Part shown: positions 112 through 3,254 of the stretch, in pieces
Numbering within the stretch: the stretch's first letter is position 1
Layout: each line of letters opens with the position of its first letter
DNA from: Huberarchaeum crystalense [NCBI: Candidatus Huberarchaeum crystalense]
GTDB lineage: Archaea; Huberarchaeota; Huberarchaeia; Huberarchaeales
DNA: 9,081 nt
NCBI GenBank assembly: GCA_002790315.1
Contig: PFUW01000014.1
Coordinates: forward strand, 6,869 to 15,949
Direction of reading: 5' to 3'
Notes under the pieces: model-generated
What the model saw: the letters and a program-made list of their open reading frames with translations, nothing else
Told to the model about the DNA's origin: nothing
Databases searched by the model: none
Translations under genes and position numbers: made by a program

Positions 112-125
112 ACCCAAAAAATTAT

Positions 126-197
126 GGGCTGGTAGCACAACGGTAGCGCGTCTGCTTTGCAGGCAGGAGGTTGTGGGTTCAAATCCCACCCAGTCCA
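126..197 (+). tRNA. tRNA-Ala, anticodon UGC
   Basis: A full cloverleaf can be folded. The acceptor arm pairs 126-132 (GGGCTGG) with 190-196 (CCAGTCC), and A197 is the discriminator base. The anticodon stem pairs 151-155 with 163-167 around the loop TTTGCAG, which gives anticodon TGC at 158-160. The T arm is GTGGG-TTCAAAT-CCCAC at 173-189. The G128:T194 pair is the G3:U70 wobble that marks tRNA-Ala for alanyl-tRNA synthetase. The D arm (135-138 with 146-149) has one A-C mismatch. The D loop keeps the GG at 142-143. CCA is not encoded beyond the two C's that belong to the acceptor stem, because T follows A197. There is no intron. The minus-strand reading frame across this gene is a translation artefact. 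Confidence 0.95.
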
Positions 198-266
198 TAA
201 AATAGAAAACAAACAAAATTTGCACACACCACCTGCTCTCTTTATAGATTTTACTTAAAAACTTAC

Positions 267-695
267 TTACAAACCATCTTCACTAATTTTTTTGTGTTTA
301 TGCGTCAAAAGATATATATCTATTATTACAAACACTAAAACAACACAAACAACATATGTCTTGCTCGCAATCTCCACAGAATAAAATACAAAAACACTAA
401 ACAAAATCCAAAAAATTGTGAAAATTCCAATGTTTTTAAGGTTTCGCTTTTTTAATTCCTGCCAAATTCCCATCCCAGACATTCCAAGAAGTATTGCTAA
501 CAATTCAAATGGAGGGGTGAAAACATCAAAAACCCAAGCAAGTAGCAAGATTCCCCACATAGCCACACACGCATAGCAAAAACCGCAATAAAAAACATTA
601 AATCTTGCTTTAATCGGCTGACGTAAGATTGCGAAAATTATAAATAGCAAAACAAAAAACAGCGCAAATATTAAGAAAAATAGGGAATTAAGCAT
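267..695 (-). CDS. Five-helix membrane protein with CxxCxxC motif, paralogue of the neighbour's C-terminal domain
   Basis: This 142-residue protein is almost all membrane helix: about 2-24, 35-59, 63-81, 89-107 and 114-130, with a short Lys-rich tail. Cysteines C37, C40 and C43 form a CGFCYAC motif at the start of helix 2. It aligns with residues about 415-540 of the adjacent 586-residue protein. In residues 69-97 against 475-503, 19 of 29 positions match, including the shared GIFTIFWI stretch, and CYAC aligns with CALC. The gene starts one base after its neighbour's stop (TAA-A-ATG), so translation is probably coupled. The start lies next to one arm of a 14-bp hairpin. A role in membrane thiol-disulfide exchange is inferred from the CxxC and the partner; no activity is established. 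It may act as an extra module or regulator of the fusion protein. Confidence 0.85.
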   Translation of the reverse strand: MLNSLFFLIFALFFVLLFIIFAILRQPIKARFNVFYCGFCYACVAMWGILLLAWVFDVFTPPFELLAILLGMSGMGIWQELKKRNLKNIGIFTIFWILFSVFVFYSVEIASKTYVVCVVLVFVIIDIYLLTHKHKKISEDGL

Positions 696-733
696 TTTAA
701 TCGCAACAATGATCTAACAAATTCCCTATTTTT
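676..733 (-). promoter_or_regulatory. RNA hairpin spanning a stop/start junction
   Basis: Bases 676-689 and 720-733 are perfect 14-bp inverted repeats (AAAAATAGGGAATT on one strand) with a 30-nt spacer. In the minus-strand transcript the loop holds the TAA stop of the 586-residue gene (699-697) and the ATG of the 142-residue gene (695-693). The arms code for the last residues of the first protein and the first residues of the second. It may tune coupling or mark an RNA-processing site. The function is inferred; the repeat itself is seen directly. Confidence 0.6.
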
Positions 734-2457
734 GTTTTTGAAGATTTATTATCTATCTTATTTTTTTCTTTTTTAAGATCTGTTTTTTTCAAAATATTTT
801 TATTTTCAAGGTTTTCTTTTTTTAGTGCGCGCGCTTCTTGATCTTTAAATTGAACAATTCCTATCCCGGCAAAAACCACAATTATTAAAAGCACATAAGC
901 CAAACTTATTTTAGCAAAAAGCGCATAACTAAGTGCAACAATTACAAAAATCCAAAAAATTGTAAAAATACCAAAAAATCTGAAATTCAATTTCTTTAAC
1001 TCATACCAAACTCCAGTGCAAAGCATTCCAAGCAAGCCAGCTAACAAAACAGAAGAAATCTCTACTCCTAACAAAAACAAAACAGATAAAACAAGAATAA
1101 TAATAATCAAAGCAAAACAGAGCGCGCATACCTTTATATATTTTGTAATTGTTTGTCGAGTCAAAACCACAACTACAAAAGCCACAACCAAAAAAAGCGC
1201 AATTAGAAAATACATTTCTTGAACACTGATTTCTCCAAAGAAGGACATAAAAGATATAGGTACAAAAATTGTTTGCTTATATGATATTATATTAATTACA
1301 TCATTTGTTAAAAATACAGCCAAACCTAAAATTACACAGCCTGCAAAATAATGGAACCACCACGAAAATCCACTCTTTGCTGTTGTTAATTTTTCAAGGG
1401 TTGTTTTTCCTAACAAAAACAACAACAAAATCGCGAGCAATGGAAGCACAAAAATAAAATTATACACTACCAAATACAAGAGACCTTGATGCATATCGCT
1501 ACTACTCAATTTTGCTAAAATTCCTAAATAAATTTGGCCTGTACAAGGAAGTTCAAATAAAGAAACAAGACAACCTAAAACAACAGTTGTAAATAATGTT
1601 CCTTTTTTCATCCATTTTTGCAAAAGAGGTTTAAATTTATCTGAAATTACAGACATTGGCTTCCCTTTTTTTGTAAGAATAACAAACACATCTTTAAATT
1701 CTAAAATAGCGGCAATAATAAGAATAAAAATTACTGCTACCCTGAATAAAACTAAATAAGATGAATCAAGGCCGCGCAATAATTGCAAAAGTCCAAGTCC
1801 TGCTGCTAAATAAGCCATATAGATTGAAGATATGTAAATTAAGCCATATATTAATATTTTTCTGGTTGAAAATGTTTTTGATACAGCCAAAAATCCTAAA
1901 AAAATCAGCAAAACACCAATAGCACAAGGATTTATTGAGTCAAATGCAGATGCAAAAATTACAGTTGCCCATGTTAAAGTTTGATCTAAAGTGTGGTTAT
2001 AAGAGAAATTGCATTGCTTTTGATAAGTCAATGGATTAATATTTTCTTGCAAAGCACCAATCAAAATATATTTTAAATTTTTATTAATTTCTTTGTTACC
2101 GACTAACACATTTTTTCCTGCAAAAATAACAGGCACTATTATTTGATCCTCAGAAATACAATAACGTTTTGCAAAATCATAAAGCAAGTCCAAATTGCTT
2201 TGATTATAATAAATATCTAATTCATGCAAAGAAACTCCACAAGTTGAGCAAATTTCTTGCACAATCGGCTTTACTGCTACACAATGCGAACATCCGAGTT
2301 TTGTAAAGAAGTAAATATTAATTATTGTTTGCGATGAATTTATCGAATTATTAATGTTGCTATCTTCTATTGAAGTATATGCATTGGTTGGTTGCGATAC
2401 CAACAGCGCCAGTAAAAAAAAGAGCGCGCAAATAATTACTATTAATTTAGATGTCAT
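697..2457 (-). CDS. Secreted thioredoxin-like domain + CcdA/DsbD-type core + 5-helix CxxC domain fusion
   Basis: The 586-residue protein has three parts. Residues 1-27 form a signal peptide or anchor. Residues about 45-135 are a thioredoxin/glutaredoxin-like domain with a CSHC active site (C56, C59), a second CSTC pair (C70, C73) and the usual Val-Pro turn (P109). Residues about 162-387 are a six-helix CcdA/DsbD-beta core with the signature cysteines in NPC (C178) and ELPC (C305). Residues about 415-537 are five more helices with CALC (C444, C447), homologous to the protein encoded just downstream. The tail (538-586) is Lys-rich and ends in vicinal cysteines C584-C585. CcdA-family proteins carry electrons across the membrane to thiol partners outside. 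The fused thioredoxin domain is probably outside the cell and may be the acceptor. The start codon is supported by the signal peptide. The gene begins 52 bases after the EndA-like stop. Confidence 0.88.
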   Translation of the reverse strand: MTSKLIVIICALFFLLALLVSQPTNAYTSIEDSNINNSINSSQTIINIYFFTKLGCSHCVAVKPIVQEICSTCGVSLHELDIYYNQSNLDLLYDFAKRYCISEDQIIVPVIFAGKNVLVGNKEINKNLKYILIGALQENINPLTYQKQCNFSYNHTLDQTLTWATVIFASAFDSINPCAIGVLLIFLGFLAVSKTFSTRKILIYGLIYISSIYMAYLAAGLGLLQLLRGLDSSYLVLFRVAVIFILIIAAILEFKDVFVILTKKGKPMSVISDKFKPLLQKWMKKGTLFTTVVLGCLVSLFELPCTGQIYLGILAKLSSSDMHQGLLYLVVYNFIFVLPLLAILLLFLLGKTTLEKLTTAKSGFSWWFHYFAGCVILGLAVFLTNDVINIISYKQTIFVPISFMSFFGEISVQEMYFLIALFLVVAFVVVVLTRQTITKYIKVCALCFALIIIILVLSVLFLLGVEISSVLLAGLLGMLCTGVWYELKKLNFRFFGIFTIFWIFVIVALSYALFAKISLAYVLLIIVVFAGIGIVQFKDQEARALKKENLENKNILKKTDLKKEKNKIDNKSSKTKIGNLLDHCCD

Positions 2458-2509: not shown

Positions 2510-3043
2510 TTATTTTAAATTTGTAAATTGCACGCTTTCAAGAGTTACATCTTCATCTTTGTCAACAATAGCAAGTATTAATTTTATTTTGTTTTTTGCA
2601 GCCAAATCAGTTAGTTTAAAAAGATTCTGCCACTTTAAAGCAGAATTTTCATCTAAAATTCTCACCAAGTATTTCTCTTTTTTTTTATAACAAACCCAAA
2701 TTTTTTGAAGCCTACTAAAGTTAGTAGTGTTGCGGGTCATATTAGCAACTCGCGTCTTGTCAAAATCCACAACATATCCGTCAAGCCGCAATTTTGCATA
2801 AACTGCGCGCTCTATTTTTAAAGTTTTGCTGTTTATTATAATTTTAGTCAAATCAACTATTTTTCCTGCCAAATCAACTACACTAAGACGATTTTTATCT
2901 TGCAAATATTCTGCTTCAACAAGATTTAATTTAAAAAGACCTAATTTATCGCGCTTTCCATAATGCTTTGACAACAATCTTGCTTCATCTTTCTTGTTAG
3001 GAATTGTAACTGCACGACCCTTCAAAATTCCATGAATTTTCAT
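2510..3043 (-). CDS. tRNA-splicing endonuclease (EndA)-fold protein, probably a structural subunit
   Basis: The 177 residues follow the archaeal EndA plan. An N-terminal domain has KHYGK (26-30) and the LVEAEYL segment (41-47), typical of the HYG and LVEA-YL signatures. A region with YAKLRLDGYVV (82-92) matches the family's Y-LR-RGY-V segment. The C-terminal nuclease-fold strands include KYLVRI (124-129) and LAIVDKDEDVT (157-167). Length fits the 170-180 residues of one EndA subunit. From memory of the Methanocaldococcus enzyme, the catalytic His before YLV is replaced (K122 region), and the catalytic Lys before the AIVD strand aligns with I153. A tyrosine (Y119) remains near the expected place, after a shortened loop. 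That pattern suggests a non-catalytic partner in an alpha-beta type enzyme. It starts one base after the stop of the small membrane protein gene. Confidence 0.75.
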   Translation of the reverse strand: MKIHGILKGRAVTIPNKKDEARLLSKHYGKRDKLGLFKLNLVEAEYLQDKNRLSVVDLAGKIVDLTKIIINSKTLKIERAVYAKLRLDGYVVDFDKTRVANMTRNTTNFSRLQKIWVCYKKKEKYLVRILDENSALKWQNLFKLTDLAAKNKIKLILAIVDKDEDVTLESVQFTNLK

Positions 3044-3044
3044 T

Positions 3045-3254
3045 TTAGTTTTTATTATCTACTCTTTTATTCATATAAATAATATCTATTCCAATGATGA
3101 TCAAAAGAATTGGCCAAAGATCTGTTGTATCAAAACCAAAACCCATTTTTCCAAGAATACCTAATTTATCTAATAAAAAAATAACGCCGAGAACAATTAA
3201 TATTACTCCTATCATATATGCGTTGTTTTGTACAGCTTCTTTTTCTCCAACCAT
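3045..3254 (-). CDS. Small two-helix membrane protein, LiaI/LiaF-like (DUF5668 type)
   Basis: The 69-residue protein has a short polar N terminus and two hydrophobic helices, about 13-35 and 43-61. The second begins with LWPILLIIIGI, and the first ends in FLLDKLGIL. A GVIFLLD-type first helix and a WP-L-LIIIG second helix are characteristic of the LiaI-LiaF-like/DUF5668 membrane region found in bacteria and archaea. The function is unknown; in bacteria, related segments occur in envelope-stress proteins. It is the first gene of the minus-strand row and joins the EndA-like gene by TAA-A-ATG. Nothing links its function to tRNA splicing, so the pairing may be positional only. Confidence 0.7.
   Translation of the reverse strand: MVGEKEAVQNNAYMIGVILIVLGVIFLLDKLGILGKMGFGFDTTDLWPILLIIIGIDIIYMNKRVDNKN

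What the first reader, a model, noticed from the sequence alone, without database searches (positions are those of the whole stretch)
267..2457. Three-part membrane thiol relay with a free-standing copy of its last module
One chain joins a secreted thioredoxin-like domain (CSHC), a CcdA/DsbD-type core (NPC and LPC cysteines) and a 5-helix domain with an intramembrane CALC. The next gene encodes only that last domain (CGFCYAC), one base downstream. In DsbD the thioredoxin domain follows the membrane core; here it comes first and a new redox-looking module is added. The conserved CxxC at the head of helix 2 in both copies suggests a direct role in electron transfer rather than a simple anchor. 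This would be a compact trans-membrane disulfide system in an archaeon with few genes.
Basis: partly seen in the sequence, partly recalled or inferred. Interest (0 to 1): 0.62.

Follow-up and report, generated by a model that had tools for sequence, protein, structure and literature searches.

The report
Three-part membrane thiol relay in archaeon
A tiny archaeon carries one membrane protein that probably passes reducing power from inside the cell to the outside; its last part is a protein family without a name, with two pairs of cysteines that probably face the cell interior, and the same family turns up unfused in metal-related gene clusters of other small archaea.

Summary
Window 697-2457(-) encodes 586 aa: a Trx-like domain (C56xxC59), a CcdA-like core (C178, C305) and a 5-helix module (C444xxC447). 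One base on, 267-695(-) encodes the module alone.

CxxC is kept in 23 of 23 stand-alone copies studied (window's included) and 6 of 6 fusions; a CC tail in 18 of 23 and 6 of 6. Charge pattern puts both pairs in the cytosol. No Pfam or NCBIfam model fits the module above cut-off. Of 22 stand-alone loci, 19 have an AHCPLCT membrane protein beside it; the other 3 have a DUF411-like/CcdA fusion in the same gene run instead. Many of these clusters carry P-type ATPase, cupredoxin and DUF411 genes. In my searches the full fusion appeared only here and in 5 Altiarchaeota genomes.

Best reading (inferred): a cytosol-to-outside reductant relay whose module is the cytosolic entry arm. Main rival: Cu(I) binding. 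Against: no significant genome-wide co-occurrence with CcdA-like cores; structure prediction could not test cysteine distances. Trx-first CcdA fusions are not unusual; the added module is the new part.

The parts
697..2457 (-). 586-aa fusion protein: signal/anchor helix, Trx-like domain, CcdA-like core, 5-helix module, charged tail ending LDHCCD
   Evidence: ORF; homologues of the same architecture in 5 Altiarchaeota genomes
2377..2457 (-). N-terminal hydrophobic signal or anchor helix (aa 1-27)
   Evidence: hydropathy; boundary inferred
2038..2325 (-). thioredoxin/glutaredoxin-like domain (aa 45-140), probably extracytoplasmic, CSHC at 2281-2292
   Evidence: sequence matches to Grx/Trx families below cut-off; profile A4 to DsbA chains E 0.001; Foldseek probability about 1 to Grx/Trx chains, E near 0.1, on a poor model
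1282..1980 (-). CcdA-like six-helix core (aa 160-392) with C178 (1924-1926) and C305 (1543-1545)
   Evidence: 37-38% identity to L002 and L003 proteins, E 1e-30 to 6e-29; alignment A6
838..1224 (-). 5-helix module (aa 412-540) with CALC at 1117-1128, probably at the cytosolic mouth
   Evidence: alignments A1, A2, profile searches, charge pattern
700..837 (-). K/E-rich tail (aa 541-586) ending LDHCCD; vicinal cysteines C584-C585 at 703-708
   Evidence: LDHCCD invariant in 6 of 6 fusions; CC tail in 18 of 23 stand-alone modules
267..695 (-). 142-aa free-standing copy of the 5-helix module, CGFC at 576-587, no CC tail
   Evidence: ORF, 36% identity to fused module, tree

Best explanation
The fusion is a trans-membrane thiol reductant relay of the CcdA/DsbD type with an extra cytosolic entry arm. 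Cytosolic thioredoxin, kept reduced by thioredoxin reductase, reduces the flexible C-terminal CC tail and/or the C444xxC447 pair at the inner membrane mouth. The electrons pass to C178/C305 of the CcdA-like core, then to C56xxC59 of the outward-facing Trx-like domain, which reduces or isomerises exported thiol proteins. The 142-aa copy is an additional CxxC module that would dock on the same core. Shown: architecture, conservation of every cysteine pair among the relatives studied, the charge pattern for topology, recurrence of the three parts fused or in one gene run, and presence of Trx-like and TrxR-like genes. Inferred: topology itself, direction of flow, order of transfer, role of the free copy.
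For: CxxC in 23 of 23 stand-alone modules and 6 of 6 fusions; CC tail in 18 of 23 and 6 of 6, with invariant LDHCCD after a variable linker. K/R counts near the membrane 26 inside against 5 outside for the arrangement core N-out, module C-in, which puts CxxC and CC in the cytosol and the Trx domain outside (helix limits set by me). Module fused to the CcdA-like core in 6 genomes and in one gene run with a DUF411-like/CcdA gene in 3 of 22 stand-alone loci (directly beside it in L065, with three and two genes between in L067 and L078). In those 3 the AHCPLCT protein is missing, while the other 19 have it directly beside the module and no CcdA in the module's run, as if one outward-facing thiol core replaced another. 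The window's genome has genes like thioredoxin reductase (SYCAVC), cytosolic thioredoxin (WCGPC) and two Trx-like proteins with N-terminal hydrophobic helices (WCQHC, YCDVC).
Against: No redox measurement exists. CcdA-like cores occur in 17 of 22 module genomes against 158 of 257 others (p = 0.17; 15 of 20 against 160 of 259, p = 0.34, without two weak matches); 5 module genomes show none, so the module does not need such a core. Known CcdA/DsbD cores are reduced by thioredoxin without such a module (established knowledge, recalled). Stand-alone modules sit in metal-related clusters, which fits metal binding as well. The predicted structure is too poor to measure cysteine distances. The free copy and 4 of 22 other stand-alone copies lack the CC tail.
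Confidence: 0.5

Rival explanations
1. The module is a Cu(I) (or other soft-metal) binding membrane protein: CxxC and the CC tail collect the metal on the cytosolic side and hand it to an exporter or to extracytoplasmic cuproproteins; fused to the CcdA-like core it would keep such sites reduced.
For: Of the 22 stand-alone loci outside the window's genome, called genes include a P-type ATPase in 11 (16 by six-frame profile), a separate DUF411 gene in 15 (plus 3 as the N-terminus of a CcdA fusion) and a cupredoxin in 8; HMA and DUF302 genes also occur. One member of each family was checked by Pfam; the ATPases' metal is assumed, not tested. DUF411 protein PA4714 responded to copper stress in Pseudomonas (passage of PMC6444534).
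Against: The window's genome shows no DUF411 and no E1-E2 ATPase (about 75% complete); the 4 Altiarchaeota genomes searched show no DUF411 though they have an ATPase (the DUF411 search also missed the diverged copy in G248). None of the marker families labelled was seen in the stretches around the 5 fused genes fetched. The CcdA fusion argues for thiol exchange.
Confidence: 0.27
2. The module is a structural partner or assembly subunit of the core; its cysteines form a structural disulfide or zinc site.
For: Small hydrophobic 5-helix bundle; moderate AF2 model (mean pLDDT 68) with only generic helical-bundle matches; a second copy beside the fusion.
Against: Among columns filled in at least half of 29 module rows, the only fully invariant ones are the two CxxC cysteines, two glycines and, where a tail exists, the two tail cysteines. 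A stable cytosolic disulfide is unlikely, and an invariant CC at the end of a variable linker looks like a moving arm (inference).
Confidence: 0.13
3. The flow runs the other way: the module passes oxidising equivalents inward or to a membrane quinone (a DsbB/VKOR-like role).
For: CxxC at a helix start in a small helix bundle resembles VKOR/DsbB in outline (recalled).
Against: The CxxC faces the cytosol by charge pattern, opposite to DsbB/VKOR (recalled). CcdA-type cores carry reductant outward (established knowledge, recalled). No VKOR match for either window protein in Pfam and no VKOR in the window's genome or four Altiarchaeota.
Confidence: 0.05

Closest known systems
DsbD (ScsB) thiol-disulfide interchange proteins (architecture recalled)
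   Same: One chain with an extracytoplasmic Trx-like domain and a membrane core with a cysteine in helix 1 and helix 4; presumed cytosol-to-outside reductant flow.
   Different: Trx-like domain precedes the core; an extra 5-helix module with CxxC and a CC tail; no DsbD alpha domain seen.
CcdA and archaeal N-terminal Trx-CcdA fusions
   Same: CcdA-like core with NPC and LPC cysteines; an N-terminal CxxC domain, as in L004, L008, L009, L010, L014 and L019.
   Different: In 5 of those 6 the chain ends within 4 residues of the core; L014 goes on with a tail that has no CxxC. The module and its CC tail are absent.
DUF411 / copper-tolerance gene clusters
   Same: The stand-alone module lies near a separate DUF411 gene in 15 of 22 loci.
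   Different: The window's fusion is outside such a cluster and its genome shows no DUF411 or P-type ATPase hit.
C-terminal shuttle cysteines of thioredoxin reductase and mercuric reductase (recalled)
   Same: Vicinal cysteines at the end of a flexible C-terminal tail that could shuttle to a buried CxxC.
   Different: Those are soluble flavoenzymes; no homology is claimed.

Membership tests
CcdA / DsbD transmembrane core | Conserved cysteine in core helix 1 and helix 4 (NPC, LPC context) | tested here: met
   C178 and C305 invariant in six fusions and aligned with an invariant cysteine in eight core rows
CcdA / DsbD transmembrane core | Sequence match to a curated DsbD/CcdA profile | tested here: inconclusive
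   No PF02683 match in the window's genome or protein; a 37%-identical relative, L003, matches at E 7.5e-4, below cut-off, with SfLAP scoring better; the Altiarchaeal fusion L092 matches NCBIfam DsbD at E 0.0016, below cut-off
DsbD | Order alpha domain, core, C-terminal Trx-like gamma domain (recalled) | tested here: not met
   Order is Trx-like, core, 5-helix module
Thioredoxin/glutaredoxin-like (N-terminal domain) | CxxC active-site motif | tested here: met
   CSHC 56-59, cysteines invariant in six fusions
Thioredoxin/glutaredoxin-like (N-terminal domain) | Trx fold or profile match | tested here: inconclusive
   Several Grx/Trx matches but all below cut-off; DsbA chains E 0.001; Foldseek probability about 1.00 with E near 0.1 on a low-confidence model
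DUF411 (N-terminal domain) | DUF411 profile match | tested here: not met
   Pfam lists no DUF411 for the window protein at E up to 1; a local DUF411 profile hits the CcdA fusions of L065, L067 and L078 but not the window contig at E 1e-4
VKOR/DsbB | VKOR profile match | tested here: not met
   No Pfam VKOR match for either protein at E up to 1; none in the genome
VKOR/DsbB | Outward-facing CxxC | tested here: inconclusive
   Charge pattern puts the CxxC inside; topology not measured
Any described family for the 5-helix module | Pfam, NCBIfam or PADLOC model over its cut-off | tested here: not met
   Pfam: P0001, P0002, L066 and L065 copies; NCBIfam: P0001, P0002, L066 copy; PADLOC: P0001, P0002. 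PHROGs was not searched

The most novel reading that the evidence does not exclude
The 5-helix module is an undescribed archaeal family of cytosolic-face thiol adaptors (CxxC at the inner membrane mouth plus a swinging CC tail) that plugs into interchangeable outward thiol cores (CcdA-like or AHCPLCT), and a fully fused version is shared by Altiarchaeota and an ultra-small archaeon that is probably their episymbiont, where it could maintain cysteine-rich surface proteins.
Probability: 0.33. Interest if true: 0.72.

Novelty: new variant of a known kind. Interest (0 to 1): 0.5.

Why it matters
Electron entry into CcdA/DsbD cores is usually described as direct contact with soluble thioredoxin (recalled). 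A dedicated, conserved cytosolic module with its own two dithiols would be a new part in such relays. The same module in metal-related clusters of many small archaea would give a first functional handle on several families without curated models (module, AHCPLCT, CEYCC...MVGGC). The fusion, seen so far only in Altiarchaeota and one tiny genome, is a possible host-symbiont link.

Tried and rejected
Structure: AF2 on the fusion with five relatives gave mean pLDDT 48 and pTM 0.37, so no cysteine distances were taken; its Foldseek list (best E 0.09) is led by Grx/Trx chains matching the N-terminal domain, with a few poor long membrane-protein matches. AF2 on the short copy gave pLDDT 68, five helices, C37/C40 at the start of helix 2. 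Foldseek gave nothing better than E 0.5 and VIA-align only generic helical bundles (best Z 9.7, designed bundles). No fold relationship is claimed.

Strict CcdA partnership of stand-alone modules: tested, not significant. The CcdA profile A6 contains three proteins from these same genomes, which leans towards finding them. The exclusion of AHCPLCT and CcdA (19 against 3 of 22 loci; Fisher 6.5e-4) does not allow for relatedness: two of the three CcdA loci share one family. If the CcdA-like gene 4 kb away on the other strand in L090 is counted, p is 0.0026.

Rows dropped: of the 22 genomes, G421 and G551 (weak, frames with stops) were not fetched as neighbourhoods, so 20 of 279 is the firmer count, the weak matches in G387, G343, G185, G100, G346, G220 and the second one in G332 were set aside. 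The longest frames at these nine places were printed: none of those shown has a CxxC, and I judge them chance or too remote (most look like soluble or other proteins; the G421 frame is hydrophobic). Counting them as relatives would lower the conservation figure. Two of the 22 stand-alone loci come (G249 with a CC tail, G378 without). L069 and L079 seemed to lack AHCPLCT because longer overlapping frames masked it; the six-frame scan found it (17 by called genes, 19 by scan).

The scan of named genomes goes by two short peptide patterns typical of the fused type, so more distant fusions could be missed. Viral contigs: no relative. PDB sequences: none for the module.

Papers: listings of Huberarchaea/Altiarchaeum, DUF411/copper/DPANN, CcdA/DsbD in archaea, CopG+DUF411+copper (none), Woesearchaeota copper terms, Altiarchaeum with thioredoxin/disulfide and DUF411/DUF302/CcdA/archaeon showed no title or abstract start on this module; full texts were not read for it. 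Passages only were seen in PMC6792436, PMC4975002, PMC6444534 and PMC9084895, and passages plus one section in PMC12133352.

Full report
What is there. The minus strand of the window encodes a 586-aa protein at 697-2457 and, one base downstream, a 142-aa protein at 267-695 (junction TAA-A-ATG). The long protein has an N-terminal hydrophobic helix, a Trx/Grx-like domain with CSHC, a CcdA-like core with C178 and C305, a 5-helix module with CALC at 444-447, and a K/E-rich tail ending LDHCCD. The short protein is a second copy of the 5-helix module, 36% identical, with CGFC but no CC tail.

Domain identity. The N-terminal domain has below-cut-off matches to glutaredoxin and thioredoxin families, a match to DsbA chains at E 0.001 and a Trx-like region in an otherwise poor model. 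The core is 37-38% identical to CcdA-like proteins of other archaea. Those score best against SfLAP and ArsG-type models and at most below cut-off against DsbD_TM, so 'CcdA-like' is used here rather than full membership. The module matches no model above cut-off in Pfam, NCBIfam or PADLOC (PHROGs not searched) and no solved structure by sequence.

Relatives of the fusion. A profile of the two window modules was run on 394 genomes of the same domain. Full-length fusions of about 580-620 aa appeared in 4 of them besides the window's own. The six distinct fusions (window plus five) share every cysteine pair, including the final LDHCCD, although the linker before it varies. The scan used two short peptide patterns, so absence elsewhere is not proven.

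Relatives of the stand-alone module. A broader profile matched 22 of 279 genomes of another archaeal phylum, two of them weakly and probably by chance. With two loci I studied 22 stand-alone loci outside the window's genome. Counting the window's copy, CxxC is kept in 23 of 23 and a CC pair near the C-terminus in 18 of 23. Among columns filled in at least half of 29 module rows (23 stand-alone, 6 fused), the fully invariant ones are the two CxxC cysteines, two glycines and, where a tail exists, both tail cysteines. In a tree the window's two copies and the Altiarchaeal fused modules form one side of a long branch (support 100/100); the pairing of the two window copies is weak (82/41) and may be long-branch attraction.

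Topology. In the 29-row alignment K/R columns cluster before the CxxC, after helix 3 and in the C-terminal tail. In the window fusion, loops assigned inside hold 26 K/R near the membrane against 5 outside (helix limits set by me). This gives Trx-like domain outside, module N-terminus outside, CxxC at the cytosolic mouth of helix 2, CC tail in the cytosol. It is a rule-based inference, not a measurement.

Gene neighbourhood. Around the 22 stand-alone modules, called genes include DUF411 (15 loci), a family I label AHCPLCT (a membrane protein with CxxC after its first hydrophobic helix), a CEYCC...MVGGC protein (15), a MarR-like regulator, P-type ATPase (11; 16 by six-frame profile) and cupredoxin (8), besides HMA and DUF302 genes. 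Family names rest on one checked member each; the ATPases' metal was not tested. The six-frame profile scan found AHCPLCT in 19 loci, directly beside the module in each, and in the other 3 (L065, L067, L078) a CcdA-like protein with a DUF411-like N-terminus in the module's gene run: directly beside it in L065, a few genes away in the others. L090 has AHCPLCT and also a CcdA-like gene about 4 kb off on the other strand. One reading is that the module is a constant cytosolic part and the outward core is exchangeable. The test is small and not corrected for relatedness.

Results against. If the module served CcdA-like cores only, module genomes should be enriched in them. They are not: 17 of 22 against 158 of 257, p = 0.17; without the two weak matches 15 of 20 against 160 of 259, p = 0.34. 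The structure prediction was unusable for distances.

Setting. The window's genome (0.5 Mb, 74 contigs, 75% complete, the only one held of its phylum) has genes like thioredoxin reductase and thioredoxin and two Trx-like proteins with N-terminal hydrophobic helices, so a reductant source and possible clients exist. It shows no DUF411, no P-type ATPase and no VKOR, with the caveat of incompleteness. The window's G+C is 32%. Size, isolation and a gene otherwise seen only in Altiarchaeota suggest Candidatus Huberarchaeum, a 0.5-Mb, phylum-level archaeon proposed as an episymbiont of Altiarchaeum, some of whose large surface proteins are Cys-rich (passages of PMC6792436). This identification is an inference; no named sequence was matched.

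Conclusion. I hold the reductant-relay reading at 0.5 and Cu(I) handling at 0.27.

Noticed in passing
L065-L084, L089, L090: Recurring gene cluster of small archaea: DUF411, AHCPLCT membrane protein, module, CEYCC...ACGCxH...MVGGC protein and a short protein also ending MVGGC, often with P-type ATPase and cupredoxin genes; the AHCPLCT and CEYCC members tested have no Pfam or NCBIfam match above cut-off.
   Followed up: partly
L066 (CEYCC protein and two short proteins), L065, L078, L084: Two or three neighbouring proteins share the C-terminal ending MVGGC, which looks like a common end signal or metal-binding end.
   Followed up: no
L065, L067, L078: CcdA-like proteins whose N-terminal part matches a local DUF411 profile (E 7e-8 to 5e-12): a DUF411-CcdA fusion.
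   Followed up: partly
L092:5735-10289: In Altiarchaeales IMC4 the fusion is followed by an Fe-S/CCG gene (heterodisulfide-reductase-like, recalled), a DUF302 gene and an SBF-family transporter gene.
   Followed up: partly
L110 (window's genome, contig 72): Two neighbouring Trx-like proteins with N-terminal hydrophobic helices (WCQHC and YCDVC), possible clients of the relay.
   Followed up: no
window 125-198: tRNA-Ala (TGC) just beyond the end of the short module gene, on the opposite strand.
   Followed up: no
window 2510-3043, 3045-3254: tRNA-intron-endonuclease-like protein and a small LiaF/LiaI-like membrane protein directly upstream of the fusion on the same strand.
   Followed up: no
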